The notes under the pieces: generated by a model
Told to the model about the DNA's origin: nothing
Database searches by the model: none
Seen by the model: only the letters and a program-made list of their open reading frames with translations
Part shown: positions 12,963 to 46,399 of the stretch, in pieces
Position numbering within the stretch: position 1 is the first letter of the stretch
Layout of the letters: each line of letters starts with the position of its first letter
Program-made: the position numbers and the translations under genes
DNA from: Porpolomopsis calyptriformis
Lineage: Eukaryota; Basidiomycota; Agaricomycetes; Agaricales; Hygrophoraceae
NCBI GenBank assembly: GCA_951640195.1
Contig: OX621176.1
Location: 372,001-436,000, forward strand
Direction of reading: 5' to 3'
DNA: 64,000 nt

Positions 12963-14017
12963 GTTAGTTGGTTGGTGCAGTTCAGTGGTGTTGGGAGGAT
13001 AACCAATGCCGTACCATTTCTGAGCTTTGAGATATTGCCATTGTCGGCTCACCCTTAGGAGCTCTCAGTATTGATCTGGTACTGAATTCGGGAATGCCTT
13101 GCTAGTTATCCGCCGAAGTTTAGAATAGAAGTTAAGAGCTGAAGTCTTGCATTCCAAGTTTTGCATCAGGAATTCATTTAGGACATGAAATGTGAAGACA
13201 GTTTGGATTCGTTGGAAGCTAGCTGGATAGAGACCGATAGATAAGAGGTCTAAGTCCTTTCACCGATTCTCATGGGCCGCTCGGCATGTGCACCAGACAA
13301 TAGGTATTTTGTGGACCCCAGAAGTATCAATGACCAGCACCTCTGTCATGTCTGGTGCTGTGGGCTGGCTGCCAAAGATGTCAGCGTTATCATCGCCCAC
13401 CAAGCCAATCACGGTATCCACCAAAAGATTCGCCGAGGCATTGGCGCCAGGGCATGAGTCGCCGAAATGGCCAGTATATAGTTTAATACTGGCCTTGGCC
13501 AAACTGCTTGGTTGGAAAAAGTTTCCAACCCATTGCTCCACTTGGTGGAACGGGAGCCGAGGGTGGGAGGCCAAGAGACATTCAGTACAAAACATCAGTG
13601 ACCCAAAGCAATCCTGGCATCTCCAACTGCCTTCTCGGTGTCAGCATCCTAAGCAAGTTCTTCCCAGAGTTGGAGCTTCTGATGCTAAAATAGTATAAAG
13701 GAATTCCTCCCAGCGAGGAAGCCATTCGCGCATGAAATCATTCTGAGACTAGATGGGTTTCAGATAGCCAAAGCTGTAAGACTTGTTCAGTGGAATATTA
13801 CCTTTCTTGTAGTTGGTAGGCGGAATGGATTTATAGGTGGGGAGTTGACAAACATGCTGCTGTCATCCTGCAGGGACTTGGATGGAGAGGAAGTTGATAC
13901 AGAGCTGGTAGATGGTATATCCTTCCTTTTGACACTTAGCCCCCTGGATGTGTGTTTTTCTACATACACAGTCTGAACACTCTTTCTCACAGCTGTTTTC
14001 TTGAAGCATTTAGTCAT
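12963..14017 (-). pseudogene. KDZ transposase, N-terminal half
   Basis: Reading on the minus strand from MTKCFKKTAV (14017), a Ser-rich N-terminus is followed by an intron-like gap (about 13800-13750, GT...CTCAG), then a Cys-rich CxC-type segment (CQDC...FCTECLLASHPRLPFHQVEQW, about 13630-13520), the GHFGDSCPG motif, VIDTSGVHKI, and a helical part that runs to 12963. The last codons (HQPTN) continue in frame into TGADETT at 53341 once the Ty3-B copy and one pentamer are removed. Stops (near 13258, 13085 and others) show it is dead. The C-terminal half with YDIACQ is at 53341-55760. Role in the family: binds transposon ends and catalyses cut-and-paste transposition. Confidence 0.85.
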
Positions 14018-14458
14018 TTCGGCAGTGGTACAGAAGGAGGGATGGCTCGGAGGGTAGTGGATAGTGCTCAGGAAGTGGAGGGAATGGTCAAAAGAACTGG
14101 AATGGAATATGGGTTACAACACAACTAGTACCGCATTTCATGCGCAAATTTGAAGATAGCCTCGGCTGAGATTGGTAGCCATCGGTCGGCTTCGGTCTTT
14201 TCACTGATAGCTCAGAGGTTGCATTCCCTCCATCTCTTACTGCCATTACAACTTCCCAATCTCTCACCATGAACCAGTAGAGCGTTTGGTCTTTGAACTT
14301 CAGAACCTGTGGTTGTAACTTTTGTCCCAGGCACTGATGAAATTAAGGTTCAATTAGATGAAATGATCAGGTTGTCCACATGATCACGCTATTGATCCTC
14401 ACTTATCTTTAACAACATGTAGCATCTTATGGGCCAATTTTTATTTCTCTTGTCAACC

Positions 14459-16901
14459 ATGTCGCTCAATCTCACCCAAGTTGAAATTCTCCAAGCCATC
14501 CGAGATGAGTACAAGACAGCTGATGACAACTGCCGAAGGGTTCTCCTAGGCAAGATGGTCAAAAAATTCATTCACACTGATGGTAAAAGGACTGAGGAGG
14601 TCTCAGCCACCAACAAACAGGAATTTTTATTGGTGCCCATATAGTCATTTCCTGTTTATCGAACGGTACTCACCTCAATGAGCAGCTCATAGTCACATGG
14701 TTCGGTAAACATGCTCGGAGACCGAAGGTAGCGCAGGTGACCAAGGCTCACCATGTCAAGCAGTGGAACCTACACACTGTCATCCAAGAACTTCACCGAA
14801 ATGAGATCATGTGGTTGTGCGAAACTCTCAGCGGAGCTAAACCTGGAGATCATTCCTACATTGGATCTTACCAAGTAGCAACCAAGAATTTTATCGCCCA
14901 GAAAATGTCTGATGCTGACCGAGCCGAGTACTTACTCAAGGCTGAACAGTGGAACAAGGATGGTACACCAGCTGAAACTCATTGGCGGTTTGTGGTATCA
15001 TTATTGAAGAGTTCACAACATCTCACAATAATTTGCAGCCTTGCTGACAAGGAGGCCTACAGCGCTATCAAAGACTTCACTCTTCAAATGCAAAAAAGGC
15101 TCGGCGTTCGGCTCTTTGTATTATCAACTCATGTGGATCCAAAAGGCACTGTCACATTCTGCAAGTATGTGGAATGAATGCTCTAATCGGCACACATCTG
15201 ATACATCTCTCAGCCATGACCATAACGACCAATTCGGCAATCAACCCTTCTTCAAAGTCTGCCCCACCACCGAACCCATAATGGTTGAATGGGAATATTA
15301 TGCGAATCAACTTTTTGCGGAGGATATTGGCAGTGACCATGATAGCGCCGCTGAGGATACTACTGGCCGAACCAATTTCATTAAGGCCCGAAAGGAAATT
15401 GAAGATAATATTCTAATGACTGATGGTCAGCCAACCCTCCCTGAACTCAATCTTCAAGACTTGCCGAATCCACTGCTGTTAAAGCACCTCATCCGAACTT
15501 TCTTGACTGCTCACTACAGTATGTATTTATTCATCTACCACCTCCAACACTATTCTTATCATTCCCACAGATATCCAAGTTCAGAACAAGAAGGCTAGTG
15601 TACCTTGGGGTGCTATTTCATCTGACCAAGATCATTACATTGCTCCGAAATACCTTCCTCCGAACTTTCAGATTGCTGAGCCATCCAAGTTGAAGAAGGA
15701 TGAAGCTGAAGCCCTTGTTACCCATTGGCTTGCGAGGGTTGAGGCTAACAAGACCCCTTTCCAATTTCAAAACCTTGCTCCGAAGCCTCTGCCAATCCCC
15801 AAGGTGCCCCGAAAGAGGCAAACTTTAGCTTCGGCGGTGCTCATCAACTTGGAAACTTCCTCCGACGATGATTCCGATGACAATCAGTCTGCTGATAACC
15901 ACTCTGATGAATCCAACAAATTGCATGCTAGACATCCCTCCGACTCCACTTCCACTTCCACTTCCAATCCTCGGCTGAAGCCTATCCCCAAACCCCCACC
16001 AATCAACCTTTGTTCCCCAGCCAGCTTTTCAAAAAGCAAACACCACTGACAACATTTCCTTCAGTCCCTTTCCAAGCATGACCCATACCAGTCCATGCTC
16101 AAGTATATCAAGCTGTTGCCTGAAGGCGATATCACTGACGCCAAGCGTCAAGTTCTACAGCCATGGGCCAATTGGAAATACACCAGTGTGCACCTACCTG
16201 AAAACATCCATATAAATGGTGAAGTATTCGCCGATTTCACCCAGTGGCTCCATAGTCGACCCTATCTCCTCCCAACTAATACTCTGGTCCACCAAACCGC
16301 TGCCGAATCCATAGCCTTAGTCATCGGCCTGCTCTTTCGAGATCTCCAATTCAATGAGACACCCGAGGATGACCCTCTTGCTGAAGTCCTCCCTGAGTTT
16401 ATCACAGAATCAAGGATTCCTGCAGATAAAGCTCATGTACGTCTGTTGACATTGAGTAGGGAGATCAAGGATGCTATCAAAAGTTGGATTAAGGATAGGC
16501 TGCCTCCGGCTACTACCTCCATTGATGCCAACATTACTGCTCCCACCCCCAATACTACTGCTACCACTGCTGCTAGTACCACTGCCGCAGCTGCTACACC
16601 TGCCTCCCCCATTGCCACCATTGCTACCACTGCTGCTGAAGATGAGCATGATGCTAACGGCACCAATGAGGATTCTCACCCTAATCCTAACAGTTCTTCC
16701 TTCGGCCCACTATCTAAGCCAACTGCCCGCCGAGCGAAACCGTCAACTGCTGATTGGATCATCAAGACCCGATCCCAATCAGGGACATGCAGAGGTAAAG
16801 GGCTGAAAACTATTTTCGAGGCTGAGCCATCACCAAAGAAGAGGGGAGGTGAAATTTTGAAGGTTGGACTGCCGAAAGGCACTAAGAGAAATCGGCGGTG
16901 A
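14459..16901 (+). pseudogene. KDZ-linked accessory gene 1 (unknown function)
   Basis: Four exons can be modelled with clean phase: 14459-14632, 14686-15164, 15214-15518, 15571-16901 (introns GT...AG of 49-53 bp). The protein begins MSLNLTQVEIL, has a conserved-looking core (MSDADRAEYLLKAEQWN; LLLKHLIRTFLTAHY), then a low-complexity acidic/Ser part (about 15850-15980), and an Ala/Thr/Pro-rich tail (16530-16640) with a basic end. An in-frame TGA at 16047-16049 (context suggests CGA) breaks it. It lies head-to-head with the transposase and shares about 440 bp of upstream DNA with it. Similar ORFs are, to my knowledge, frequent near transposons in Agaricomycete genomes. No enzymatic motif seen. 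Confidence 0.7.
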
Positions 16902-17124
16902 TCCTGAATTGAATATTGGCGGAGCTAAGGCCTGTCAGCGGTGACTTTCTTTATCTTTGCCTAGCTAAATGACACCCATGGCATTGTCAATATTATTAGT
17001 ACTCAGTCACAACTTAGAGCAAAGCAAACATGAGTTTATTCAAAAAAAATGAAACAGAACATTAAAAAGAAACAGGCCCTGACATGTTGAATATCTAGAG
17101 TGAAAATGCCACCCCTGATTCCTT
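16902..17124. other. Spacer between convergent KDZ accessory genes
   Basis: 223 bp without ORF between two genes that end toward each other. AT-rich with an A-run (17040-17050); probably shared 3' ends. Confidence 0.4.
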
Positions 17125-18994
17125 CTATTCCTGCGGCAAGAGCTCCATTTCCTTCACTACTATACTAGCATCTTCGGCTGACCTGTTTTCATCCTCCATC
17201 ATCGTCTGGTCTTCAGCGAGGGGGGAGTCCTCGGTGGTGCCCTCCGGAGTGTCTGCAGCCAACCCCTTAACGATCTCCTTGGAGGGATTGGTGGGACTCG
17301 TCTCATCGCTTTCAGCCTTCATCGGCCCCGACCCATACCCAGCCACCACGTCCGACGCCTCCATCTCAGTCTCTGGCTTGTGGGACTTTTCGGTCTCAGT
17401 CTCGATGTTGGCACTGGCTCTGCCTTGCTCCGCTGTCCTGATGGCGGTCCAGTCGGGAACCTGGTCCTTGTCGGCGGCCCCACCCTGTTCTCCGCAGCTG
17501 GCTTCGGTGGTTTGGACCAACACCTTGATGAGGCATCGGAGGTGTTTGACTTCACCAGGTAACCCTTCGAGAGCCTTGACCTGTTCGCGTAGGGTGGCTA
17601 CTTCGTGAATGAGATCAGACATGTCGGAGCTACTCCACTCGGCGGCGGTCTTTTGCTTGACCGATGGTTCTGAAGGAGGGGGGAGGTAGTCAGAGGTCTC
17701 GGCATCGGTCCTCATAGCCTTGACCGGTTTGGGTTGCGGTCGCTCGGTGGGGTGGGAGCTGGCTTTGGTGGCTTTGAGCTTGATCTGGACCTCGGCGGTC
17801 TTCATCTTGCTGTTGGTGGTCTTCATCTTAATCTTTAGCTTGGGCATGACCTTGTTCTCATAGTTGGCGTATGGCTTGCCTCGCTCCTCGCATCGAACCT
17901 TGGACATATGGTAGTCATGGCAAACTGCATATGCTCAGCCTTCTTCGCGGTAGCAAAGAGCCTGCCGACTAGCGCATCGGAGGCATGCAGGAATCTAACA
18001 TATTTATTAGCTTAAGAATGAGCTGAAAAGAAAATACTCATGAAAATCTCTCAGGTGCCACTTTTGACCTTCTCTGACTCAGCTACCTTTGTCTTCTCCG
18101 TCTTCTCCCGCTTCACTACTACCTCATCTGTCTCGGACCCTTCGGAGCTTGTCTCTCGGTCATCCTGCTTGCGTTTCCTACTTGTCGGCGCCGTGTCCTC
18201 ATTGCTGTCTTCTATCATGATGGCTGACTTTGGTGCTTGTCTAACCTGCGCGGGCTTCAGCTTCGGTGCCCTGGCGATTATCAGCTGACCCTTTGGCTTC
18301 TTTTTGCTCCACCCGCTCTCATCAGCGGTGTCGGCGTTGTACAACCGAGATGGGCCAGGAATCGGTGTTGTTGTTTTGGCCTTCAGGACAGGAACAGAGG
18401 GCGGCCGCTTCTTTGGCACTGGTGGTGGTAATTTCTTTTGAGGGGGGGCAGGAACAGGATTAAACATATCTACAAATATGTTAGTAAAAAATACTTTAGG
18501 GATGAGGGAACTCACCTTGGATTCTTCAAACTTCCTTGTCCATTGCATTTGTTAGCGTGCAGGGCCGAGTCAGCTGTCGAGGTTGGTGCCACGGATGCTC
18601 AATGACCCGCGGGTCGTCTCAGCACACTGCTCCCAAGTTTACCTTCTCCGGATCTTCCATTGCCTCTGCCCACTCCTCCCATGCACTCAGAACGAGCGAG
18701 GGGATCTTTGGCACTTCCGACGCGGCAGAGCATTCATCCAACAGTTCGTGTGATTCAAACTAAAAAAACCCAAGTCAGTTTTATTTTTGGATTGTTATGT
18801 GGCACTTACCAGCAACTGTATAAAGTTGTCTTTCCAGTCACCGAAGTCAGTGTCTGACTCCTCTTGCTTGTAGGAGAGGAGCCAGTCGAGGCAGAGGTGG
18901 AGGCCGTAGGCCTCGCGCGTGAGGGCGGTAGTCGGCTTCAACATGTTGATGGCGATCGGTGTGGTGGTTGCGGGTGGTGGTTGCGGGTGGTCGT
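17125..18994 (-). pseudogene. KDZ-linked accessory gene 2 (charged, coiled-coil protein)
   Basis: Exon-like blocks on the minus strand: up to 18810 (INMLKPTTALTREAYGLHLC...DNFIQLL), 18759-about 18510 (FESHELLDEC...), about 18469-18050 (MFNPVPAPPQKKLPPPVPKK..., Pro/Lys-rich, then Ser/Asp-rich) and about 17990-17125 (CHDYHMSKVRCEERGKPYAN, basic region, a coiled coil near LREQVKALEGLPGEVKHL, acidic tail). Intron borders GTAAGT/AG are visible at 18809-18760. In-frame TGAs break it (near 18610). The 5' part was interrupted by unit U: the reading frame on the U side of 19000 differs from the KDZ sequence beyond 20712. Function unknown; could be DNA- or chromatin-binding. Confidence 0.55.
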
Positions 18995-19000
18995 CGTCGT

Positions 19001-19211
19001 TGTCACAACTGTAGTTGCAAGTCTTTTCGTCAATCACAAGGCAGGCCTTGGAGCTTAATAAGTCTAGTAGGATGTAGAAGAAAGTCCTGACGGGGACGTC
19101 CTCGTAAAGGGTGATGATTCCTTCTGAGTTAAGTTTTACTTCTACAAAGAAGTTGTTCTGCGAGTTAAATCCGTTGCGTGCCTCTGCTGAGAGTTTAGGG
19201 AATATGGGCAT
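19001..19211 (-). pseudogene. Truncated gene start inside unit U
   Basis: An ORF opens at 19211 (MPIFPKLSAEARNGF) behind a TATA box (19354-19361) and reaches the end of the unit after about 70 residues (KTCNYSC). The same first 69 residues are present in the other U copy (44548-44757) and are cut at the same base, so the gene is truncated in the mobile unit itself. In this copy it runs by chance in frame into accessory gene 2. Function unknown. Confidence 0.55.
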
Positions 19212-19718
19212 GAACGATTGGCTCAGTAGTTATGGGTTTATGTTTCTCTTTTCTTGTTCTGATGGAAAAGAAGTCTGATGATTCTGATTGCATTCGTGCT
19301 ACTACAAGTAATCTCACAGGAGGACGAAGTGATGATCCGCTTCGCCCTCAGGGTTTATATAGTATTTCTAAAATAGGAGTCATTATGAGTCAGCCTCTGC
19401 AGTCACCCCATTTTCTATTGTTCACAGCCTTCAATTAAGGTTTGCCATTGTTCCTAGTCATTCTGCAAAAGGCTGTGTGCTTCTGATGACTCAATTCTAT
19501 TGGGCATAGCCTTCCGCAGAATGAGGCTGTGTTATCTCATGACTGGTTTCTATTGTTCTTCTGGTTATGAGATCGCCGTTGTTTCTATCTCTTGCCCAGC
19601 GTATCGGGTTTCTCTTCTTTGACTGAGGAACCTCTTTTTGGTCTTCCCTTTGTTTTCTGAGCATATAAAAGGTGTGGGGTTGTATCCCTACGCTTCAGTT
19701 CAATCCTTGTTAATCATC

Positions 19719-20548
19719 ATGGCTCCTTCCCACCAAGGCCACTATGTTCGATTCTTCAAGCAGTCTGGAGTGGTGCACTGCACTGCTCCTGTCTTTCTTG
19801 ATTGCGATTCGTTTCACTACTACCTCCAGCGCATCCCCTCCGACGCCGACCTCTATTGGTCTTCCTTCTCCTGCTTCGCTTGCGGTGGCAAGCACAAAGT
19901 CAAGAAGTGTCCGTTCGTTCGCTGGCCAATCCAGCATGCTTGTGGGTTGATGGAGGATCCGCTTGGTGAGTATTTTGTTTTGTCTTTATTAGTCTGTGTT
20001 TGTTGATAATAGGCTTTCCTTTTCTTAGCTTGGGACGATGACGCCCCTCCCCCTACTTCCCAGCTCCCTTTGGAGGAGCGGGTTAATTGGGGGTCTGACA
20101 AGTGGGCTGATTCCCTCCCTTCTGTCAAGAAGGAGGCAGTCGACTGGGCTGCCAGTCCCCCCTTCCATCCTTGGACCCCTGGTCCAATGAGTTCTTTATC
20201 TAGTGGTAAGCTCTCAATTCTCTCGCTCTCTTCGTGATTGTTGACTCTTTATTTTTAGTGGAAGATTTGTCGTCGTTGTTGACTAACGTCAATGTTAAGA
20301 TCGAGGAGGAAGAAGTTCCTCCTAGTTTGTTATGGAGTCCCACCAACGATTGGTTGGGTGAGGAAGCGAGAAAGATAGCAATGAGTTTCGTCGAGGGGAA
20401 GGCTGCCGAGTTGCAGGCCTCCGGTGGTGACACTAATGGGGCAATCTACTGGGGTAATAAATTGGCCGCTTTAGATGGTCAAGTAGTTTCTAGTTTCATA
20501 GAGTTTTTGAGAGATAGTATGGTGCAGGAGATTGCCAAGACGGACTAG
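19719..20548 (+). CDS. Zinc-knuckle-like protein gene carried by unit U
   Basis: Three exons (19719-19965, 20029-20205, 20259-20548) with GTGAGT...TTAG and GTAAGC...TTTAG introns give an uninterrupted 237-residue protein. It starts MAPSHQGHYV and contains CFACGGKHKVKKCPF (about residues 55-70), a CxxC...C metal-binding-like knuckle, then an acidic/Trp-rich middle and a helical C-terminus (WLGEEARKIAMSFVEGKAA). A TATA box lies about 50 bp upstream of the ATG. This is one of the few intact genes in the window; the other copy (44039-43233, minus) has a TAG in exon 1. No known full-length family is recognised; nucleic-acid binding is a guess from the knuckle. Confidence 0.65.
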
Positions 20549-20880
20549 TATAAATAGTTAGTCGGACATAGACTCCTCCTTTTGTACAAGTAGTTTCCGC
20601 TGCCAACAAAGACAGCCCCCCTTCCAAAGAGAAAAGGCATAGAAAAGAAAGGAAAAGAATAAAGAAAAAAGAGGAATTTTAAGAGAGCGAATGCCAATTT
20701 CATGATAGTCATCGCGGGTGGTGGTGGTGGTGATTGCGGTGGTGGTCGCGGAAAGAAAAATGGTTGCTTACGAAATCAGCATGCAATTGCTTATATAGGC
20801 ATCCCATCAATGTTAGACTGCCACATGAGTCATCGATCATCAGCATTTCCCATATATCCATATAAGGAAGGTACCATTCT
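20549..20880. other. Edge of unit U and KDZ spacer
   Basis: Contains the A-rich 3' end of unit U (20600-20690), the duplication at 20708-20712 and a GGTGGTGGTGGT microsatellite (20712-20750) that, read on the minus strand, encodes Thr/His runs and probably belongs to accessory gene 2. Confidence 0.4.
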
Positions 20881-22390
20881 CGGCACTGACAATCCATCGG
20901 CGCCGACTTCTTTCGCAGCTCGGCGGTTTTCCTTTACAATACTCGGCCATTCTGATACCCATTCCTCTTTGGCCCACCTGTAAATAACTTTATAATTCCT
21001 TCAGCCCTACCTAATGCATAGCCTTTGTGCTTCGGCCAAACCGGTAGCTTCCCACTGGGCCTTCAGCCCTCCTCTAGTACGCGGTCATCAATGGCCCTCG
21101 GCCCACCTTTGGTACAGAGCTACCAATGGCCTTCAGCCCACCTATAAATCCCTTTATCCTTCCTTCAGCCCTAGTTAATACATGCCTTTCCTACCTCGGC
21201 TGAACCATGTCGCTAACCATTTCACTCCTGGCCCACCCGTAGTACAGAGTTACTAATGTCCCTCAGTCTCCCAGTAGTATACAGTTACCAATGGCCCTTG
21301 GCCTCTCAGTGGTTCTCTACTTATTACTCTCAGCCATTCCATCGCTCATTACAGCGACTCTGCTTCGGCCCACCAGTAATCATCTGTATATGTACCTCAG
21401 GCCCTACCTAATATCTACCTATCACCCCTCGGCCGTACCATGTAGCTAACCATTTCGTCCTCGGCCCTCTTATAATACAAAGCCACCAATACCCTTTGGC
21501 TCCTCAGCTGTTCTTTGCTATTATACTGGGCCATTTCGTTGCTCATTACAATGATTCCTCTTCAGCCCACCTGTAAATATCTTTATACTTGCTTCAGCCC
21601 TACCTAATACCTACCTATCGAACCTTGGCCCAACGGTAGGGCTAGCTATTCTCCCATCGGCCCTCCTCTAGTACAAAGCTACTATTAACCTTTGGCCCCT
21701 CGGTGGTCCCCCTCTATCAGCTTTCAGCTATTCAGTAGCCCATTGCAATTATTCACCTTCAGCCCATCCATACATACCTTTATCTATTTCGGCCCTTCCC
21801 TAAGCATGGGTTATTATGTTTCAGCCGAGTGGCATACCCAACTAAATCATTCTCAGCCCTGTTGTAGTACACACCTATTAATGCCATTTAGCTGCTCAGT
21901 TGCTTTGAGCTATGAGCCCTTGGCCCCTTTATTATACATTACAATTAATTCCCTTCGGCCCGACCATACATCTTAGTACTGCCTTTGGCCCTTCCCTATC
22001 CATAGCTTATTACTCCTCAGCTAAGCTGTGTTACCAACTATTACATCTTCGGCCTCTCTCCATATATAGGTTATACTACTTTGGCCAAGCTGTGTCAATA
22101 TCAATATAGGTCTCGGCCCCCTCATGACATGGCTATAATTGTCTTCGGCCCATTCATGTATCTACGCTTACATCTCTCGGCGATTCAGTATTCTATGACT
22201 ATTATACACTTTCGGCGGACCTGTATATAATACAGGACTTACTTCAGCCAACCTTGAATACATTGTAACATCTCTTCGGCTCTCCCGTACCGCTTCTACA
22301 AACTAACTATCAGCCGAGATGAATTTTATAGGAAAACATTAGTTTCGGTGCTTTGGTATCCCTCGGCTATATTTGTACTTTTGGCTGAAG
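20880..22390. repeat. KDZ left subterminal repeat array
   Basis: About 1.5 kb without ORFs of interest is made of degenerate repeats with the core TTCGGCCC / CTCGGCCC / TTCAGCCC every 40-70 bp, each followed by a variable CCTACCTAATAC- or TAGTACAAAGCT-like tail. A similar array with the core in the same present-day orientation occurs at 57420-58750. Undoing the inversion makes the two arrays inverted to each other at the two ends of the KDZ element, as expected for subterminal binding sites. Confidence 0.75.
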
Positions 22391-22452
22391 ATCGGTGTGC
22401 CGAGAAACACCACTATATAGCAAGTTCATTTCACTGTAAGTCACCACTATCT
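22384..22452. repeat. KDZ terminal inverted repeat, left
   Basis: GCTGAAGATCGGTG(T)GCCGAG...ACCACTATATAGCAAG...CACCACTATCTT matches 58755-58825 with few differences over about 65 bp. They are direct in the present order and inverted in the restored order. The copia reading frame begins again a few bases further (22460). A candidate 8-bp duplication is GCTCAGTC (22464-22471) against ATTCAGTC (complement of 58826-58833), 6 of 8 identical, so the exact edge is uncertain. Confidence 0.75.
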
Positions 22453-23971
22453 TGGCTGAATGGGCTCAGTCGAATATGCGACTATGGAACCCACTACCAG
22501 TTCCACTGATCTAATCAATAAGGCCGGAATGCTAGCAGAGGCAAATGTGACTGAGGCCATCGAACCCCACACACTTGCGGAAGCAAAATCACTTGTCGAT
22601 TGGCCCGAATGGGAATCAGCCATCATGGAGGAACTGAAGATGCTTGAAAGAGCAGGAACTTGGGTGATCGACCACCCACCGCCGGAAGCAAACATTGTCA
22701 GATCAAAATGGGTTTTCCGACTGAAGCGAAATGCCGCTGGAGAAATCGTACGGAGAAAGGCCCGACTTGTCGCGCAAGGATTCTCCCAACTTCCCAGAGT
22801 GGACTACTTTGATACGTTTGCACCCGTCGCCAAGCTAGCGACAATCCGCACCTTCCTTGCCATATCCATGCAGACTGATCTCGAACTACACCAGATTGAC
22901 ATCAAAGGCACATATCTGAATAGCGAACTCACCAATGATGAGCGCATCTACATGCGCCAACCCCCCGGATATTCCACCCCCAATTCTGATGGCCAAGTGT
23001 GCCGACTTGTCAAAACAATCTATGGCCTGAAGCAGTTGGGCCGCCGCTGGTACCAAAAACTCATCAGAATCCTTGTCAACCGGATAGGATTCACTGTATG
23101 CAATGTCGACGAAGCCGTGTTCTTCCGTCGCAATGAAAAGTCCCAGATAATCATAGTTGTCCATGTCGACGACTGCATGATTGGGGCAACGAATCTCGAT
23201 TTGATTGTCAGTTTCAAGTCGGAGATACAGAAACACCTCGAAATAACTGACCTCAGAGAGCTGCATTGGCTCTTGGGAATTGAAGTCATCCGTGACCATC
23301 AATCCCGCACAATCTCACTGTCGCAGCGAGCCTATATTGATTCAATTGTGCATCGTTTCAGATTTGATAACGACAAACCTGTATCGACCCCAATGGACCC
23401 ACAAACCTGCCTAATGCAGGCGCAATCCCCTACGACACCCCTTGAATGCGCCCGGATGTGCAATATACCATATCGCGAAGCAGTCGGATTGCTAATGTAC
23501 GCATCACTTGGAACCCGACTGGATATATCGTTCGCCATAACTACGCTTTCCCGATTCTCAAGTGATCCTGGAGAAGCTCACTGGGAAGCTGTAAAATGAG
23601 TATTCTGATACCTGAAGGGAACAAGGGACCTATGGTTGGTCTATGGGGGAGTCGAGAAGAAGCTCACTGGGTGGGCAGATGCAGATGGAAGCATGGCTGA
23701 AGACCGCCGTGCGATCTCGGGATACGCTTTCCTTATAAATGGCGGAGCCATCTCCTGGAGCACCAAAAAGCAAGAAATCGTCTTGCTTTCCACGACTGAG
23801 AGCGAATATGTGGCTGTAATGCATGCAGCCAAGGAGGCCATTTGGCTCCAGTCACTAACAAGCCAACTTTTCAGATTCGCTAACCCGGCGATGACCCTGT
23901 TCTCCAACAACAAATCCGCCATCGCTCTCACACAAAACTTGCAGTATCACGCCCAGATGAAACATATCGAT
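22453..23971 (+). pseudogene. Ty1/copia reverse transcriptase and RNase H (3' half of the element)
   Basis: The frame reads WPEWESAIMEELKMLERAGTW, WVFRLKRNAAGEIVRRKARL, YFDTFAPVAKLATIR, IYGLKQ and the copia-type active site HVDD (23162-23173), then the RNase H segment (DADGSMAEDRRAISGY...TTESEYVA). TGA codons at 23598 and 23607 (both where arginine is expected) break it, and one RNase H position reads SNNKSA where DN is usual. Ty3-C is inserted at 23972 (TCGAT duplication) and the frame resumes at 31879-32039. The gag/integrase half is at 61630-58834 on the minus strand. The copia 3' LTR here and the 5' LTR there share the AGAAA duplication. Confidence 0.92.
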
Positions 23972-24373
23972 TGTTACGATACATTCATTCTTTTTCTTTT
24001 TTGTTCTTATCTTATCGCAGCCTATCTAATCTTGTCTCACTCATTCACCACCTTCCTTATCCCATCGTTTCCTTCTTGTCACTTGTGACCATGACTGTCA
24101 CATCTGTGACTGTCACACATGAGCGACTTCCGCCATTGGTCAGCAATAACACCATCCGCAGTTGCGCAGCCATCCGCAGCAGCTGAGTCAGCCGTTCCAT
24201 GGATCGTTGTTGAGTCGTAGGATTCAAACTCAGAGGTAGATAAGTAGCATAGTTAGAGTTTGTATCCTTAGTTTCGACCTCAACATAGACACCCCACCCT
24301 AGTTGTTTGACTGGGATCTCTGCTCTATCCGTTGACCACTCTAAGCTGACCGAAAGACCACTGCGCCTTAACA
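23972..24373 (+). repeat. Ty3-C 5' LTR
   Basis: Starts TGTTACGATA, ends GCGCCTTAACA. Contains AGTTTCGACCT (24270-24280), complementary to the PBS just outside the LTR. No clear TATA box seen. Confidence 0.95.
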
Positions 24374-24375
24374 GA

Positions 24376-32039: not shown

Positions 32040-32046
32040 GGGGGAG

Positions 32047-36855: not shown

Positions 36856-37073
36856 TGTAAGGCAGTCAAGGGGGGTGGGACTGCACAGCGAGGTTATGGT
36901 CCTGGGTATCGACAGTGAGGGTCTGTGATATGGTTCTGGGGGTGTAATCTCTCATTCTCTAGTATATTTATTTTGGGTGGCTATGGTGTCGAAGTATATA
37001 TACTGTAAATACCTTTATGTACCAGATAAGGAAATACTTTGTTTCAGCATGTAGAGTGTTCAACACACCTACA
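36856..37073 (-). repeat. Element E 3' LTR
   Basis: 218 bp, mate of 38849-39648 without its insertion; a third, solo copy is at 45792-46007. Confidence 0.88.
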
Positions 37074-37102
37074 TATCCTCTGTACTTAGATATTGACTGT
37101 CC

Positions 37103-38794
37103 TTAGTCAATCAACGTAATAAATCTAGTTGCGTCGTAGGTGCCTTGTCCAAAAGTTGTGTCGAATGCCATCTGTATAATACCGGTGACAATCCTACGAG
37201 CTTCGATAGGATCCATGCTATCAAGTGGATCAGGAGATGTGGGGAAGGGGAGAGTGTCATCTGGTGTATCAGATGGTTGCGTAGTGGAAGCAAAGGTTGT
37301 TGGAGGGGATGAAGACATGGTTGGGGGTGTAGATGAAGGCACATGAGGTAAATTAGTGTCGCGAGGGTGAATAGGAGGGTTAGAAATGGATCGGGCAGAT
37401 GTGTCAGAGGTCAGGGATGATGATTCAAGAGAGTGACTGGGCTGGGAAGAGGTAGATGGGTGTGTGGGGTTCAATGTGTGTTGAGAGCACGAAAGGGGTG
37501 GATTTGTGTTAGCTGTGGAATGGAAGTGGATTGGGTGCTCAGAACTGGAAGGGAAGGACCTGTTGGAGGTCCCCAGGGATGGTTGAAGACTAATGGCAGG
37601 GGAAAATGAGGTAAATGGGGGGCCGGGGGCTGACATGTGTTGGGGGGGAGGTAATGATATACATGAGGCATTGATGTCGTTGGGAGGTGTGAGATACATG
37701 GAAAGGGGTGGGATGGACTCATTGGAGGTCCTGGATGATACACAAGGTGAGGAAACAGTGTCCTTTATAGTGGACGACAAGGGGGGTGATGATATGTGTT
37801 GAGAAGGTGAAAAAAGCGAATATTTTGCGTTGGGGTCGTTGGGGGGCAATTCCTGTGGTCTGAGAGGTGGAAAACGTAGGCTAGGACGTACTGTACGTGA
37901 TCTAACAGTTCCGGTATTAAACGAGGGCGTGGACGTGGTGAAATCGGGACGAGGAGGTAGAGGATGGGTCTTGAAAGTAAAAACATCGTCGGGGTCGTTG
38001 GTGCGGATCGGAGGTGTGGATCGTTTGCGTCTAGCGTTGTATGGGTGCAGAGGCGTGTCCGGAAGTGAACGCGAAAGTTTCGTGTTGAATGGTTGAGTGG
38101 ATGTAGAGATATGGGGCAACGGAGGTAGGGGGTGGTTTCTAGAAGTGAAAACATCGTTCGCAATATTGGTACGGATCGAGGGTGTGGATTGTGTCTGTTT
38201 AGCATCGAATGGGTAGCGAGAGGCGTACGGAAGTGGACGTAAAGGTTTCGTGTGAATCGGCCCAGTGGATGTGGAGATATGAGACAAAGGACGTGGGGGG
38301 TAGTTAATGGAAGTGAAAGCATCGCTCGTGATATTGGGGAGGACGGAGTGGGTGGATCGTAGCTGTGTAGTATCGGAAGGGTACTGAGAGACGTATGGAA
38401 TCAGACGTGAAAGTTTCGTGTAAAATGGTGCAGTGGACGTTGAGATATGAGACAAAGGATGGGGGGGTAAGACTGAAGTGTTGGAGCCACTTGGAATCAT
38501 TGAGGGCATCATTGGTGATGAAGGGGAGTGGCATAACAAAGCTGGATGGGGAGAAGGAGGGACATAGAGGTGTCCTTTGATATGAGATGAGACCAATGAT
38601 GGTGGTCGGGATGGGAGACGGCAGTGGTTGGTGGCTGCGCAAATGGTTGAGACAAAGGCAAAGACAAGAATAATGGTGAACACGATGATGGAAGTGAAGG
38701 GAACCTTGAGCAGGGATTCATTATAGAGGGTCCAGGAGGTGGAGGGTAGCAGAGAGATGTCGTACAAGTGCTGAGAGGGAATGGTGGTGGACAT
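37103..38794 (-). CDS. Element E ORF: Pro/Ser/Thr-rich protein with N-terminal membrane anchor
   Basis: The ATG at 38794 lies 55 bp inside the 5' LTR border and opens a 563-codon frame without stops. After about 30 residues there is one hydrophobic segment (FTSIIVFTIILVFAFVSTI, about residues 33-54), a likely signal anchor. Then come at least three imperfect repeats of about 50 residues (each with HISTST, TKLSR/TKPLR, FTS..HP), long Pro/Ser/Thr-rich stretches, and a short conserved-looking C-terminus (MDPIEARRIVTGIIQMAFD). The frame is open upstream to 39001, but that part lies in LTR and foldback DNA. The composition suggests a cell-surface or secreted mucin-like protein. Origin as a captured gene or an env-like protein is undetermined. 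Unusually for this window it has no stops. Confidence 0.6.
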   Translation of the reverse strand: MSTTIPSQHLYDISLLPSTSWTLYNESLLKVPFTSIIVFTIILVFAFVSTICAATNHCRLPSRPPSLVSSHIKGHLYVPPSPHPALLCHSPSSPMMPSMIPSGSNTSVLPPHPLSHISTSTAPFYTKLSRLIPYVSQYPSDTTQLRSTHSVLPNITSDAFTSINYPPRPLSHISTSTGPIHTKPLRPLPYASRYPFDAKQTQSTPSIRTNIANDVFTSRNHPLPPLPHISTSTQPFNTKLSRSLPDTPLHPYNARRKRSTPPIRTNDPDDVFTFKTHPLPPRPDFTTSTPSFNTGTVRSRTVRPSLRFPPLRPQELPPNDPNAKYSLFSPSQHISSPPLSSTIKDTVSSPCVSSRTSNESIPPLSMYLTPPNDINASCISLPPPQHMSAPGPPFTSFSPAISLQPSLGTSNRSFPSSSEHPIHFHSTANTNPPLSCSQHTLNPTHPSTSSQPSHSLESSSLTSDTSARSISNPPIHPRDTNLPHVPSSTPPTMSSSPPTTFASTTQPSDTPDDTLPFPTSPDPLDSMDPIEARRIVTGIIQMAFDTTFGQGTYDATRFITLID

Positions 38795-38848
38795 GGTGAC
38801 AAAGAAGTGGTGTGTGTCGAAAATGGACCCTTGCGGTGGGCTCCAATA

Positions 38849-39648
38849 TGTAAGGCAGTCAAGGGGGGTGGGACTGCACAGCGAGGTCATGGTCCTGGGT
38901 ATTGACAGTGAGGGTCTGTGATATGGTTCTGGGGGTGTAATCTCTCGTTCTCTGGTATATTTATTTTGGGTGGCTACGGTATGAGGGACCAAACTGGACA
39001 AAAATCAAAATTTGTCAATTTGACAAGTCTGAATTACCAAAAAAGGCACTCTCCTGCACTCTCCTGCACTCTCCTGCACATTTCCTGCAGGATCTCACAC
39101 TCTCCTGCAGGATCCTGCACATTTCCTGCAGGATCCCACACTCTCCTGCAGGATCCTTCACCTTTCCTGCAGGATCCTGCACCTTTCCTGCACTCTCCTG
39201 CACTCTCCTGCATGTGTAGGATCCTGCACTCTCCTGCAGGTGTAGGATCCTGCACTCTCCTGCACCTTTCCCACACTCTCCTGTGGGATCCTGCACTCTC
39301 CTGCAGGTGTGGGATCCTGCACTCTCCTGCAGGTGTGGGATCCTGCAGGAGAGTGCAGGAGAGTGCAGGAAAGGTGCAGGATCCTGCAGGAAAGGTGAAG
39401 GATCCTGCAGGAGAGTGTGGGATCCTGCAGGAAATGTGCAGGAGAGTGCAGGAGAGTGCAGGAGAGTGCAGGATCCTGCAGGATACTGCCTTTTTTAGTA
39501 ATTCAGACTTGTTAAATTGACAAATTTTGATTTTTGTCCAGTTTGGTCCCTCATACTACGGTGTCAAAGTATATATACTGTAAATACCTTTATGTACCAG
39601 ATAAGGAAATACTTTGTTTCGGCATGTAGAGTGTTCAACACTCCTACA
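38849..39648 (-). repeat. Element E 5' LTR, interrupted
   Basis: LTR parts 38849-38979 and 39562-39648 join to 218 bp matching 36856-37073 once the foldback element and one CTACGG copy are removed. Confidence 0.85.
38980..39555. mobile_element. Foldback element built from CTCCTGCA repeats
   Basis: A 576-bp near-complete inverted repeat flanked by the 6-bp duplication CTACGG (38974-38979, 39556-39561). The outer 68 bp of each arm (TATGAGGGACCAAACTGG... / ...CCAGTTTGGTCCCTCATA) are unique sequence. The inner arms are tandem 10-11-bp units such as CACTCTCCTG, CACATTTCCTG and the palindromic CAGGATCCTG, pointing toward each other with the turn near 39335-39345. No ORF of its own. Short MITE-like elements use TIRs, but here the whole element is stem. 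Confidence 0.85.
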
Positions 39649-42600
39649 CCAGACTCGCTAAAGCCTCAGCTTATGGTGAAGATCACGCGGTATATGTGCA
39701 CTGGGTGGTGGGAATCGGTGCAAACTGATCAAGCAGCTCCGATGCTGTGCATTCCAAAGAAGAATGGCACTCTACAGATGCCAATTGATTGTCATAAACG
39801 CAACGACAATACTTTGAAGGACGTTACACCCTTTCCTGACCAAGACCAGATCAGATATGATGTGGCTGGCAGAACAATAAGGTCAAAAATCGACCTATCA
39901 GATGCTTATGAGCAGGTACGGATAGTACCTGAAGATGTGTATAAAAGCACATTTGCAACTATATATAGCACCTATGTGAGCCATACAATGCAGATAGGAG
40001 ACTGCAACACACCTGCTACGTTCCAGCAGGTAATGACAATGATCTTTTGAGATTTTATCGGCATATTCATGCATGCCTATCTCGATGATCTATTCATCTA
40101 TAGTGCTTCCATCTCAGAGCATGAAAAACACTTGGGTCTCGTGTTTGGTAAACTACGAGAATACAAGTTCTACCTCCAAGAGGAGAAGTGCGAACTGTAT
40201 GCTGATGTAATCGACTATCTAGGTCATAAGATAGACGACAAAGGGCTACACACAGACGCCGATAAAATGGCAAGAATATGCAATTGGCAACAACCGCGCA
40301 ATTACAACGATGTCTAGAAATTTATAGGACTCATACAATATCTGGTGCATTTCCTGCCAGATATCTCAAGTTATACAGGGCCATTAGTAGCCATGACAGC
40401 GAACAGGCAACCGTTTGTGTGGAGACCAATCCACAATAAATGCTTTGAAACAATAAAGCAGATATGCTGCTTGACACCTATACTAGTGCCGATACGTCAC
40501 AAGAAAGATGAACCCATATGGGTTATCTGCGACGCCTCAATACATGGCGTCAGCGCAATGTATGGACAAGGTCCTACCTGGCAAACCTGCAGACCAGCAG
40601 GATTTATGTTGCGAAAGTTTACGGATGCTCAATGGAATTATCGTACGTTCAAGTATGAAACGATTGCGATACTCGAAGCCCTCCTTAAATGGGAGGACAA
40701 ACTGATAGGATATCAGGTTCACATTGTGACCGACCATCAAGCTCTTGAGTTTTTCAAGATGCAAAGACGCCTGTCTAGCCGACAAGCTCATTGGATGGAA
40801 TACCTGTCAAGATTTGACTTTGACATAACATACGTCAAAGGGCAACTGAATAAAGTTGCCGATGCATTGTCATGTTATTATGAAAGTGATACATGGTATG
40901 ATGCTCACCCTATGAGTGAATATGTAGACGTAGATATATGTCTAGACCCAGAAAAGGATGATCTCCCTTGGGATCATCTAAACGAAATTTATACTGGAGC
41001 CATTGAAATGAAGGCTATCCAGGTCGTCGAAGACATTCAACGACGCCAAAGCAATCATCTTCTCGAAAGAGAAGAAGATAGAGATGCGCAAGCGGCAGCA
41101 CTCGCGCTAGTTCCGATTCCAGAAATGGAACCGATGAAAAAATTAAGATCATCCCCAGACGACCCAACGATATTCCAATCCTGTAAACAGGGAGAGAACT
41201 TGCGCGCTCATATAGAGCATGATAAATCGCTGACAGTAGCGATTCGTGGAGGATACATATCCGATGCATTATTCAGCAAGGTTCTCGAGAACCCTGATCA
41301 CTATAAGGCATTCACTGTCTGTGAAGGGCTGATTTGGTCCAAGAATTTGGGGGGAGAGGAAGTACTATGTATCCCATCTGCAAAGATGGGACAAGAATCA
41401 ATTTTCGGCCTGATCATTGATCAAGCACACTCAATAGTGGGCCATTTTGGTCCACAATGTACTGCTGACTATGTAAGATGATGGTACTGGTGGCCTAAGA
41501 TATTTAGCCACATTAAACAATTCTGCAAGTTGTGTCAGACTTGTCAAACGTCGAAAGACAATATGCAGCGCCTGACAGGACTGTTGCATTCATTACCCAT
41601 ACCCACGGAACCATGGAAATCAATAGGAATGGACTTTATTGGTCCATTTCCCAAAATTGATGGGTACAATTACCTATGGGTAGTCATTTGTCGAATGACA
41701 TCAATGATCCACCTAATTCCGGTGAATACCAAAACGAAAGCATCAGAGCTTTCGTGGATCTACTTAAAAGAAGTAGTAAGGCTTCACAGCCTTCCAGAAA
41801 GTATAGTCTCGGACAGAGACTCGAAATTTACCTCCAAATGGTGGAGCGAACTTCACAGGCTCTTAGGAGCTAAACTATTGATGTCTACATCTTTCCATCC
41901 TCAGATGGATGGCGCAACTGAATGAGCTAATCGCTCAATAGGTCAAATCCTCTGAGCAACCGTAAGCTTGGATCAATGAGACTGGATCACAAAGATCCTG
42001 ATGACCAAATTCGCGATCAACATGAGTATCAGCAAAGCTACAGGCTTCACTCTGTTCGAGCTGAATGGAACATATATGCCCGCTATGATTAAGCAGGTAG
42101 AAAATACTGCTGAGACACCGCCAGGTGTCCAAGCATTTGCTCAACAAGCACTGCAAAATCTGGCAGCTGCTCATGACGCGATCATTGCGCATCGCGTATT
42201 TCAAAGACACTACGCTAATCAGCGTAGAAGGGAAGAACCATTGATTAAAGTAAACGACTTTGTGTACCTATTGACTAAGAACCTTAAACTACCGCAAGGT
42301 AGAGCAGGGAAACTACTGCCAAGGTTTGTTGGGCCGTACAAAGTCATATGGGCCTTTCCTAATGAATCCAACTATGAGTTGGAACTCCCCGATGAGCTCG
42401 TGAAGCAACAGATTCATCCGCGCTTTCATGTAAATTTGCTGCATCCGCACCATCCAAACGATGATGCGTTATTCCCTAACCGAGCGTCAGTAGACGCTTA
42501 TGACTTCGGTGAACCACTTCAAACTGAATGGTTAGTCAACGAAATAGTTGGCCATAGGTGGGACAACTGAAAACTCGAGCTGGAGGTTCATTGGAACCTT

Positions 42601-42723
42601 GGAGACATGACATGGGAGCCTATCTCGTCATGTAAAGAGCTTAGTGCTCTAGATAAATATCTAACCCTAATGGGTGTAGATACCCCTCATCAACTGCCAA
42701 GACAGCCAGTTAAGAGGCACTGA
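39649..42723 (+). pseudogene. Ty3-A reverse transcriptase, RNase H, integrase and chromodomain-like end
   Basis: All parts lie in one frame: RT (GWWESVQTDQAAPMLCIPKK; YLDD at 40078-40089), RNase H (WVICDASIHGVSAMYGQG, VTDHQALEFFK), integrase zinc domain (HSIVGHFGPQC...CKLCQTCQ), integrase core (MDFIGPFPKIDGYN; VSDRDSKFTSKWW; HPQMDGATE), and a chromodomain-like end (EWLVNEIVGHRW...TWEPISSCKELSALDKYL). Stops at 40048, 40315 (TAG), 41479, 41923, 41953 and 42568 break it; in nearly all cases family context predicts CGA or CAG. Catalytic residues are otherwise kept, so the damage is late decay. Confidence 0.92.
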
Positions 42724-42968
42724 ATGCCGACTGCACTCAGAGCCTTGAGGCATGCCGACAAGCACACCTTATATGCACACTAAACTGAGTGCAACCAATA
42801 ATTGCCTTAATCGGCAATCAATGGACTGGACATACCTGGTCTGGTGGCGGACTCACCCCAATTGGGGTAATTAGAGGCACCAGAATGATGCTACAAGTCT
42901 AAGCATGACTTGTATAAAAGCACGATAAACAAAAAACAATAGTAGAAAATTTTCTACCCTGTACGACG
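42724..42968. other. Spacer between Ty3-A pol and third ORF
   Basis: 245 bp without ORF. A TATAAAAG-like sequence (42913-42920) lies about 50 bp before the third ORF and might be a separate promoter. Confidence 0.4.
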
Positions 42969-43232
42969 ATGTCGAATGAAAACAACATGCCCACAAGCGT
43001 AAGAACAAGCCCCTACCCCATAGACCCGAGACCACCAGAAACAGTGGATGTCATGAAATTGGCGTTCACTCTCTTAAAATTCCTCTCTTTTCTTCGTTCT
43101 TTTCCTTTCTTTTCTATGCCTGTTCTCTTTGGAAGGGGGGCTGTCTTTATTGGCAGCAGAAACTACTTGTACAAAAGGAGGAGTCCAAGTCCGACTAATA
43201 AAAAACCTAAACTAGTCCGTCTTGGCAATCTC

Positions 43233-44039
43233 CTACACTATACTATCTCTCAAAAACTCTACGAAACTAGAAACTACTTGACCATCTAAAGCGGCCAACT
43301 TATTACCCCAGTAGATTGCCCCATTAGTATCACCACCGGAGGCCTGCAACTCAGCAGCCTTCCCCTCAACGAAACCCACTGCTATCTTTCTCGCTTCCTC
43401 ACCCAACCAATCATTGGTGGGACTCCATAACAAACTAGGAGGAACTTCTTCCTCCTCGATCTTGATGTTGACGTTGGTCAACGACGACAAATCTTCCACT
43501 AAGAATAAAGAGTCAACAAATCATGAAGAGGGCGAGAGAATTGAGAGCTTACCACTAGAAAAAGAACTCATTGGACCAGGGGTCCAAGGACGGAAGGGGG
43601 GACTGGCAGCCCAGTCGACTGCCTCCTTCTTGACAGAAGGGAGGGAATCAGCCCACTTGTCAGACCCCCAATTAACCTACTCCTCCAAAGGGAGCTGGGA
43701 AGTAGGGGGAGGGGCGTCATCATCCCAAGCTAAGAAAGGGAAAGCCTATTATCAACAAACACAGACTAATAAAGACAAAACAAAATACTCACCAAGCGGA
43801 TCCTCCATCAAGCCGCAAGCATGCTGGATTGGCCAGCGAACGAACGGACACTTCCTGACTTTGTGCTTGCCACCGCAAGCAAAGTAGGAGAAGGAAGACC
43901 AACAGAGGTCGGCGTTGGAGGGGATGCGCTGGAGGTAGTAATGAAATGGATTGCAATCGAGAAAGACAGGAGCAGTGCGGTGCACCACTCCAGACTACTT
44001 GAAGAATCAAACATAGTGGCCTTGGTGGGAAGGAGTCAT
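43233..44039 (-). pseudogene. Copy of the unit-U zinc-knuckle gene, broken
   Basis: Same three-exon structure as 19719-20548. Starts at 44039 (MTPSHQGHYV), but TAG replaces CAG in the FFKQSG segment and the ORF ends slightly earlier (…FLRDSIV). The knuckle CFACGGKHKVRKCPF reads as YFACGGKHKVRKCPF. Confidence 0.65.
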
Positions 44040-44547
44040 GATGATTGACAAGGATTGAACTGAAGCATAGGGACACAACCCACACCTTTTATATGCCAAA
44101 GACACAAAGGGAGGACCAAAAGGAGGTTCCTCAGTCAAAGAAGAGAAACCTGATATGCCGGACAAGAGATAGAAACAACGGCGATCTCATGACTAGAAGA
44201 ACTATAGAAACCAGTCATGAGACAACACAGCCTAATGCTGCGGAAGGCTATGCCCAATAGAATTGAGTCATTAGAACAACACAAGCCTTGCGCAGTATGA
44301 CTAAGAACAATAGCAAACCTTAAACTGGGGGCTGTGAACAATAGAAAATGGGGTGACTGCGGAAGCTGACTCATAGTGACTCCTATTTTAGAAATACCAT
44401 ATAAACCCTGAGGGCAAAGCGGATCATCACTTTGTCCTCCTGTGAGATTACTTGTAGTAGCACGAACGCAATCAGAATCATCAGACTTCTTTTCTATCAG
44501 AACAAGAAAAGAGAAACACAAAACCATAACTACTGAGCCAACCGTTC

Positions 44548-44758
44548 ATGCCCATATTCCCTAAACTCTCAGCAGAGGCACGCAACAGATTCAACCCGCA
44601 GAACAACTTCTTTGTAGAAGTAAAACTTAATTCAGAAGGAATCATCACTCTATACGAAGACGTCCCTGTCAGAACTTTCTTCTATATCCTACTAGACTTA
44701 TTGAGCTCCAAGGCCTGCCTTGTGATTGACAAAAAGACTTGCAACTACAGTTGTGACA
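44548..44758 (+). pseudogene. Truncated gene start in unit U copy 2
   Basis: MPIFPKLSAEARNRF... to KTCNYSC, cut at the same base as in copy 1, then runs into Ty3-A sequence. Confidence 0.5.
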
Positions 44759-45791
44759 GTGGAAGGCGATGGGGATCAGCTAATGGCTGGTCCCAACGAA
44801 GTCATCAGATCCCCATGCCAGACACGGCGTAGGCCCTCTTCTGAAGGGGAGAGAGAGCACCGCTCTCGACAAAACACAAGTAACTCATCAGAGTTACCCC
44901 CGCAAACATGGGTGTGTAACAGCACCATCAATGTCACAATACACTCCAGTCACCGGAGGTGTAAAGTCTGCAAAGACTATGTAATGCATGTTGTCGAAGA
45001 TAGTGTATACCAAGACGCCTCGTTGAAAGAGGCATTCGATGACTGCTGCAAGGCACACCAAGAGGAACTCATCACAGAGATCTGAAACCTAACCGTCTCA
45101 CTCGAGAAGGCTCAAGACAATGGTGATTACTATCGCACTCATTATGAACGAACTCAAGATGAGCTCTATAAAGCCAATCAGCTTATAGCCAAGCTGAATA
45201 AGTCTAATGACACTAGCGAAGCCGAATCGCTAGGAAAGCGCAAGCGCTCCCATACTGAGGGATCGCATTCACGATCGTCAGAATACACAAGGGTGGCCAG
45301 CCCTGTGACCAAGACCCCCTCTGCCCAAGACAAGGGCAAGGGAAAAGAAACAGACGAGGCTCAACGAAGAGCCGATATGGAACACTTCGATCTGTACTCA
45401 GACGATGAGTTAGCGGGCTGTGGCCTGATGTTTGAAGACCTTGACAAGGAGGATAACACATACATCAAGAGACGCTTCCCTCAAATCATTCGAGAGAATG
45501 AGGAACTGAAGGCTCGCCTTCAACCCACCTCATATGTCAAGTTCCCAAACCTCCCAGATCTGGGAGTGAATAATCAATCTGGCCCTAGTGGCGAGATGAT
45601 CAAAAAGCGCAAGAAGCGCTTGACTATTACTGCTTGGCCCAGCATCCCTCCTAGGGCCCATTACTCACCTGTTGACTAGACTGTCTGGGTTGGCGCAAGC
45701 ACTGAAGCAGCATGACGAAACGAAGCAATGGGATTGCCCTCTCCACGTGGAACTTGATCTGCGGATAACCACGGATACCCCATCAATGCGC

Positions 45792-46007
45792 TGTAGGAGT
45801 GTTGAACACTCTACATGCCGAAACACAGTATTTCCTTATCTGGTACATAAAGATATTTACAGTATATATACTTCAACACTGTAGCCACCCACAGAATATA
45901 CCAGAGAACGAGAGATTACACCCCCAGAACCATATCACAGACCCTCACTGTCAATACCCAGGACCACGACCTCGCTGTGCAGTCCCACCCCCCTTGACTG
46001 CCTTACA
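45792..46007 (-). repeat. Solo LTR of element E
   Basis: 216 bp, TGTAGGAGTG...CTGCCTTACA in present + reading; same family as 36856-37073 and 38849-39648. Flanks are GCGC (45788-45791) and GCAT (46008-46011), two transitions apart; a decayed 4-bp duplication is possible but not proven. Confidence 0.8.
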
Positions 46008-46399
46008 GCATGCTAATGGCATGCTCTGTTCATTCAAGCCTAAGAATCAGGCAACAATGAGGCTCTCGAACTTGCGCGATCGTTTATCATGACAGCACAG
46101 GTGACTCCTCGAGAGAGCAGAATGGACACTCAATGCATCGCGTTAATCAATTGGAGAGTTCCCACCTGGGCTTCAGGTGATTCCACCAATGCACCTGTAC
46201 AGGTGCTGACTTCTTCTGTGCCTGGATGGATTAACACATCTCAGCCAACCGCCACGAGCTCCCTGGAAGAGTGGGCTCATTGGTTCTACATAAACTGCTG
46301 TGCTGCGCACCCTGGAGTGCGCTTAGAATGAGATGGCAGCATTTCGCTGCGAAGCCTCCGCAGGATGCTTTTGGTTAGTCGACACAAACCAAAGTCACC

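What the first reader, a model, noticed from the sequence alone, without database searches (positions are those of the whole stretch)
12963..46399. 33-kb inversion between inverted Ty3-B copies, proven by swapped target-site duplications
Copy 1 (6049-12962, +) is flanked by GGTGA and GTTAG. Copy 2 (46400-53335, -) is flanked, in its own orientation, by GTTAG and GGTGA. Reversing the segment between them gives each copy matching 5-bp duplications. It also joins the KDZ transposase in frame (HQPTN|TGADETT), gives one copia with AGAAA duplications, and one Ty3-A with LTRs at both ends. Four independent repairs from one operation make chance very unlikely. The open question is whether the inversion exists in the fungus or is an assembly flip between 6.9-kb repeats.
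Basis: seen in the sequence. Interest (0 to 1): 0.95.

Follow-up and report, generated by a model that had tools for sequence, protein, structure and literature searches.

The report
Retrotransposon-mediated 33-kb inversion with swapped duplications
Two copies of one jumping element sit at the ends of a flipped 33-kb stretch of a fungal genome and carry each other's insertion scars, a clean textbook-type inversion by recombination between repeats, although only sequencing reads can show that it is not an assembly flip.

Summary
Two inverted Ty3-type copies (6049-12962 +, 46400-53335 -) carry exchanged 5-bp target-site duplications, GGTGA and GTTAG. Of 13 surveyed copies, 9 have matching duplications, 2 have none, and these two match only each other; no other cross-match occurs in 156 combinations.

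Stronger proof comes from natural uninterrupted paralogues in the same genome. At 20 Ty3-A places, window 6048 continues into the reverse complement of 46399, the flanks overlapping by exactly 5 bp. At 2 of 2 KDZ places, the reverse complement of 12963 continues into 53336 with the same overlap, and both read HQPTNTGADETT in frame. At 10 copia places, the next nested boundary is continuous.

Best explanation: two independent insertions, then one crossover between inverted copies. Not shown: the crossover point (chimerism tests gave no signal; the one informative LTR site goes against an internal crossover) and physical existence. The longest identical tract is 316 bp, so an assembly flip would be surprising but is not excluded. 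The mechanism is known (Drosophila Galileo, PMC2775673): a new example, not a new kind.

The parts
6049..12962 (+). Ty3-type copy 1 (c1); LTRs 6049-6407 and 12604-12962; flanked by GGTGA and GTTAG
   Evidence: Pfam RT, RNase H, integrase, chromodomain in three ORFs
46400..53335 (-). Ty3-type copy 2 (c2), inverted; 98% identical to copy 1; flanked in its own orientation by GTTAG and GGTGA
12963..46399 (.). segment inverted relative to its flanks (33,437 bp)
   Evidence: paralogous continuity at both ends
6044..6048 (+). GGTGA, left target duplication of the insertion in Ty3-A
46395..46399 (-). GGTGA (own orientation of copy 2), partner of 6044-6048, carried to the other end
12963..12967 (+). 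GTTAG, one target duplication of the insertion in KDZ
53336..53340 (-). GTTAG (own orientation of copy 2), partner of 12963-12967
4952..6048 (-). 3' end of the Ty3-A element with its LTR, cut off from the rest by the inversion
33038..46399 (+). rest of the Ty3-A element (5' LTR 33038-33233; capsid-like, protease, RNase H and SH3 matches), with further nested inserts
12963..22467 (-). 5' part of the KDZ DNA transposon, with a 1.7-kb nested insert at about 18980-20711
53336..58838 (+). 3' part of the KDZ DNA transposon, with the KDZ domain in the ORF 53711-54607
22338..22461 (.). KDZ terminal repeat, direct with 58708-58833 now
58708..58833 (.). KDZ terminal repeat, partner
22468..32261 (+). 3' part of a copia element (RVT_2 in the ORF 22460-23596; LTR 32047-32261), AGAAA after it
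58837..61914 (-). 5' part of the same copia element (gag; LTR 61700-61914), TTTCT (AGAAA reversed) after it
23972..31878 (+). Ty3 element wholly inside the inverted segment with matching TCGAT duplications: internal control

Best explanation
Two copies of one young Ty3-type retrotransposon family inserted independently and in opposite orientation about 33 kb apart on this chromosome, one into a Ty3-A element and one into a KDZ DNA transposon nested in a copia element. A single crossover between the two copies (ectopic, non-allelic homologous recombination) then turned round the 33,437 bp between them, leaving each copy with one end of its own target duplication and one of the other's. Shown: both insertion sites, their 5-bp duplications, and the reversed connection of the flanks. 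Inferred: that one reciprocal crossover did it, and that it happened in the fungus and not in the assembler.
For: Exchanged GGTGA/GTTAG, the only 2 cross-matches among 156 combinations of 13 copies. Ty3-A paralogues: of 25 places that reach the 46399 end and 32 places that reach the 6048 end, 18 pairs abut, all at exactly 5 bp overlap; two more places, C2:2363248 and C1:3705006, were read in fetched loci and are continuous with the same overlap: 20 distinct places. KDZ paralogues: 2 of 2 continuous. Copia paralogues: 9 of 9 places that begin at window 22468 abut a place that begins near 58837, and a tenth on C5 was read and is continuous. Copia LTRs and AGAAA, and KDZ terminal repeats, come into their proper relative orientation in the same operation. 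The exact 5-bp overlaps show no loss or gain of bases at either breakpoint. The copies differ at 116 sites plus 3 indels, with no identical tract over 316 bp, so reads of modest length separate them.
Against: Chimerism of the two copies, a third hallmark, is not shown. The one parsimony-informative LTR site (position 180, a CpG) joins the two LTRs of copy 1, not the pairs expected after an internal crossover, and a switch scan along 115 polarised differences finds nothing (1538 of 2000 shuffles do as well). That can mean a crossover in an LTR, a repeated CpG mutation, or gene conversion. Ty3-A has no matching duplication even in the un-inverted order. Unpaired and unread Ty3-A places remain: 6 on the 46399 side and 13 on the 6048 side. 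The assembly holds exactly periodic hits near contig ends elsewhere, a reason for care.
Confidence: 0.8

Rival explanations
1. Assembly flip: the fungus has the un-inverted order and the assembler joined the wrong flanks inside the 6.9-kb inverted repeats.
For: Gives the same sequence signature; the repeats are 6.9 kb long and 98% identical, and their flanks are themselves repeats. Exactly periodic hits near other contig ends (49,281 bp on C16, 29,310 bp on C5) show that repeats in this assembly need care.
Against: 116 substitutions spread over the copies, longest identical tract 316 bp; contigs of 1.4-4.0 Mb suggest long reads. The sequencing method is not known here.
Confidence: 0.17
2. A variant of the best explanation: the crossover lay inside an LTR, or an internal crossover was followed by gene conversion, so there was not one clean internal exchange.
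For: LTR position 180: a derived A in both LTRs of copy 1 and in none of the other 38 of 40 LTRs compared; this fits a switch in the outer half of an LTR.
Against: The site is a CpG, and 76 of 116 differences between the copies are at CpG, so a repeated mutation is easy. One site only.
Confidence: 0.3
3. No inversion: two unrelated insertions whose flanking 5-mers match crosswise by chance.
For: None found.
Against: 20 + 2 + 10 paralogous places with continuous flanks.
Confidence: 0.005

Closest known systems
Galileo-generated inversion 2z3 of Drosophila buzzatii (PMC2775673; passages seen)
   Same: Two copies of one element in opposite orientation at the two breakpoints, exchanged target duplications, single-copy target at the un-inverted sites, no loss or gain at the breakpoints.
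   Different: There a P-superfamily DNA transposon whose copies are reported chimeric, with sequenced un-inverted chromosomes; here an LTR retrotransposon, a 33-kb segment, both breakpoints inside other mobile elements, chimerism not shown, and the un-inverted state known only from paralogues of the target elements.
Ty-mediated rearrangements in yeasts (recalled, from no call)
   Same: Crossovers between dispersed LTR elements give inversions and translocations.
   Different: Not compared here.

Membership tests
Inversion by ectopic recombination between inverted mobile-element copies | homologous copies in opposite orientation at both breakpoints | tested here: met
Inversion by ectopic recombination between inverted mobile-element copies | exchanged target-site duplications | tested here: met
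Inversion by ectopic recombination between inverted mobile-element copies | single-copy target sequence at the uninterrupted sites | tested here: met
   on paralogous copies of the target elements, not on an allele of this locus
Inversion by ectopic recombination between inverted mobile-element copies | no deletion or duplication at the breakpoints | tested here: met
   overlap of exactly 5 bp at all 18 Ty3-A pairs and at both KDZ paralogues
Inversion by ectopic recombination between inverted mobile-element copies | both copies chimeric | tested here: inconclusive
   LTR comparison and switch scan give no support
Inversion by ectopic recombination between inverted mobile-element copies | physical existence in the organism | not testable with these tools
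   no reads and no relative held for this genome
Ty3/gypsy chromovirus-like LTR retrotransposon (copies 1 and 2) | RT - RNase H - integrase - chromodomain order, two LTRs, 5-bp duplication | tested here: met
   Pfam on copy 1 ORFs; LTRs and duplications. Copy 2 only by 98% DNA identity; gag and protease of these copies not scanned
KDZ DNA transposon (target) | KDZ transposase domain | tested here: met
   PF18758, E 1.9e-46
KDZ DNA transposon (target) | terminal inverted repeats with 8-bp target duplication (length recalled) | tested here: inconclusive
   repeats present, inverted in the un-inverted order; flanks TTCGACT and TTTGACT differ at one base

The most novel reading that the evidence does not exclude
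The 33-kb segment is a recurrent switch: with two 6.9-kb inverted repeats at 98% identity it flips back and forth in mycelium or between nuclei, so that both orders coexist, and crossovers in LTRs are the usual route.
Probability: 0.12. Interest if true: 0.5.

Novelty: new member of a known kind. Interest (0 to 1): 0.33.

Why it matters
It is an unusually complete footprint of a retrotransposon-mediated inversion in a basidiomycete-like fungus: both empty target sites survive as paralogues in the same genome, so the ancestral order can be read without a second strain. The same test (crosswise matching of duplications, then paralogous continuity) can be run over whole assemblies to count such inversions or to catch assembly flips. 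Every Pfam match found in the window is to a mobile element (30 of 54 ORFs of 150 aa or more scanned), so a direct effect on a host gene is not expected.

Tried and rejected
Dating and mapping the crossover by LTRs. Un-inverted pairing gives 5 and 1 differences of 359, present pairing 2 and 2; 40 LTRs compared. Too few sites; the one informative site, a CpG, goes against an internal crossover.

Switch scan along the copies by unequal numbers of derived bases: no signal. A change in density would have been expected only if the two insertions differed in age; derived bases are 60 and 55 (1 site of 116 dropped as ambiguous).

Organism. Searches did not settle it.

Partners for the two copies without matching duplications (C8, locus L007; C1, locus L039): none among the 13. 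L007 lies between two repeat families common near contig ends, which gave no empty site that I could use; L039 was not followed.

Rows left out before counting. From (13 of 861 candidates scored, so the family is larger): 4 fragment rows. From: 4 Ty3-A places that end at 6045 or 6046. From: 1 that ends 4 bases short. From: the copia place C6:2173322, which begins 37 bases in; its likely partner C6:2181270 is 6.5 kb away, so it is not continuous. From: on the 58837 side, 2 of 12 places taken (C6:2181270, C12:374414) have no abutting partner.

Literature: searches (0 papers; 2 papers, both Drosophila) and 43 search open-licence PMC only; no title or abstract start in the listings names a fungal inversion with exchanged duplications. 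Apart from passages of PMC2775673 and PMC3489678 I saw listings only, so this is weak evidence of absence.
Full report
What is there. Two full-length copies of one Ty3-type element, 6914 and 6936 bp, lie in opposite orientation. Copy 1 has Pfam reverse transcriptase, RNase H, integrase and chromodomain matches in consecutive ORFs. Both begin TGTCAG and end CTAACA. The 5 bases outside are GGTGA/GTTAG for copy 1 and GTTAG/GGTGA for copy 2 in its own orientation. I surveyed the 13 full-length or nearly full-length copies, which scored 13 of 861 candidates: 9 have identical 5-mers on both sides (one of these, L006, in a run of C), copies 1 and 2 have each other's, and 2 have none. Over all 156 left-right combinations of different copies the only matches are these two. 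The family is larger: one search lists 40 LTR places, some of them solo LTRs.

Empty sites. The strongest evidence does not rest on 5-mers. The flank left of copy 1 is the end of a repeated Ty3-A element, and so is the flank at 46399. In other Ty3-A copies these two flanks are one continuous sequence: 18 pairs from the tables, each overlapping by exactly 5 bp, plus two more found by aligning 75-base flanks to the fetched loci (C1:3705006 and C2:2363248). Of 25 places that reach the 46399 end, 18 are paired, 1 of the remaining 7 was readable and continuous, and 6 were not read. Of 32 places that reach the 6048 end, 18 are paired, 1 more was readable and continuous, and 13 were not read. Both searches scored only part of their candidates (40 of 528, 34 of 380), which probably explains missing partners. 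The flanks at 12963 and 53336 are both KDZ transposon; in 2 of 2 other copies (C3, C2) they are continuous with the same 5-bp overlap, and both natural copies read NTTELHQPTNTGADETT without a break. Among the loci examined, only those that are the window itself have 6048 and 12963, or 46399 and 53336, at the two ends of one insertion.

One level out. The KDZ transposon itself sits in a copia element: 9 of 9 copia places that begin at window 22468 abut a place on the 58837 side, overlapping by 10 bp at 7 and 14 bp at 2; a tenth place, on C5, was read and is continuous with a 10-bp overlap. One copia place on C6 that begins 37 bases further in is not continuous (its likely partner is 6.5 kb away). 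The copia LTRs (32047-32261, 61700-61914) are inverted now, with AGAAA outside one and its reverse complement outside the other. The KDZ terminal repeats are direct now. All of these become normal if the segment is turned round. They follow from one operation, so they are consistent readings of one event and not independent events. One thing is not made normal: Ty3-A has LTRs at both ends of the un-inverted order but GTTTG against CAAGG outside them. Its 5' side abuts a common repeat (32262-33037, 39 other places listed), so some other rearrangement may have touched that end. As an internal control, the Ty3 element wholly inside the segment (23972-31878) keeps TCGAT on both sides.

How it arose. 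Two insertions by an integrase that makes 5-bp duplications came first; both are complete. A crossover between the inverted copies then reversed the segment. Exchanged duplications with no lost or added bases are what ectopic recombination predicts, as argued for Galileo in Drosophila (PMC2775673, passages of the abstract, introduction, results and discussion seen). The aberrant-transposition alternative discussed there is for cut-and-paste elements and does not fit an LTR element (established knowledge).

What I could not show. If the crossover was internal, LTR pairs of the original elements should be copy-1 5' with copy-2 3', and copy-2 5' with copy-1 3'. There are 5 and 1 differences in these pairs and 2 and 2 in the present pairs. 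Only one site is informative, a CpG, and it joins the present pair of copy 1; none of the other 38 of 40 LTRs has that base. CpG changes make up 76 of 116 differences between the copies, so a repeated change is plausible; a crossover in an LTR is the other simple reading. A scan for a switch along the copies gave no signal.

Real or assembly. Sequence alone cannot decide. For real: the copies differ at 116 sites and 3 indels, and no identical tract exceeds 316 bp, so a wrong join needs reads that fail to link sites a few hundred bases apart. For caution: the sequencing method and the organism are unknown to me, and the same assembly has exactly periodic hits near contig ends. I put the real inversion at about 0.8; this is a judgement, not a computed value.

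Verdict. It is a clean new example of a known kind of rearrangement in a region where every Pfam match found is to a mobile element; interest is moderate, well under the 0.95 first given.

Noticed in passing
G000 C16 and C5: Hits of a repeat common near contig ends recur at exactly 49,281-bp spacing on C16 (17721, 67002, 116283, 165564) and exactly 29,310-bp spacing on C5 (31840, 61150, 90460, 119770; spacing checked): large exact tandem copies, real or an assembly loop.
   Followed up: no
window 4946-4952 and 33033-33038: Ty3-A lacks a matching target duplication even in the un-inverted order, and the KDZ-like fragment 1782-4949 beside its 3' LTR was not found to continue beyond its 5' LTR: a possible second rearrangement.
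   Followed up: partly
G000 C8:2132644-2139627 (L007) and C1:3599568-3606551 (L039): Two further copies of the same family without matching duplications; possible partners of other exchanges, none found among the 13 copies.
   Followed up: partly
window 6049-12962 against 46400-53335: C/T and G/A changes make up 108 of 116 differences between the copies and 76 are at CpG: decay that looks like cytosine methylation.
   Followed up: partly
window 19001-20705 and 43049-44758: A 1.7-kb repeat, with at least 25 further places, is inserted in both the KDZ and the Ty3-A element, again as an inverted pair in the window.
   Followed up: no
window 38849-39648: Short repeated units around CTCTCCTGCAGGTGTAGGATCCTGCA with inverted repeats, inside the Ty3-A region.
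   Followed up: no
G000 C12:689496-698186: A copy of the same family lies in inverted orientation between fragments of another copy, with matching GAAGG duplications.
   Followed up: no
L043 and L046 (G000 C1:1308534-1308892, C6:2152833-2153191): Solo LTRs of the same family with matching 5-bp duplications, showing that recombination between LTRs of this family also happens within single copies.
   Followed up: no
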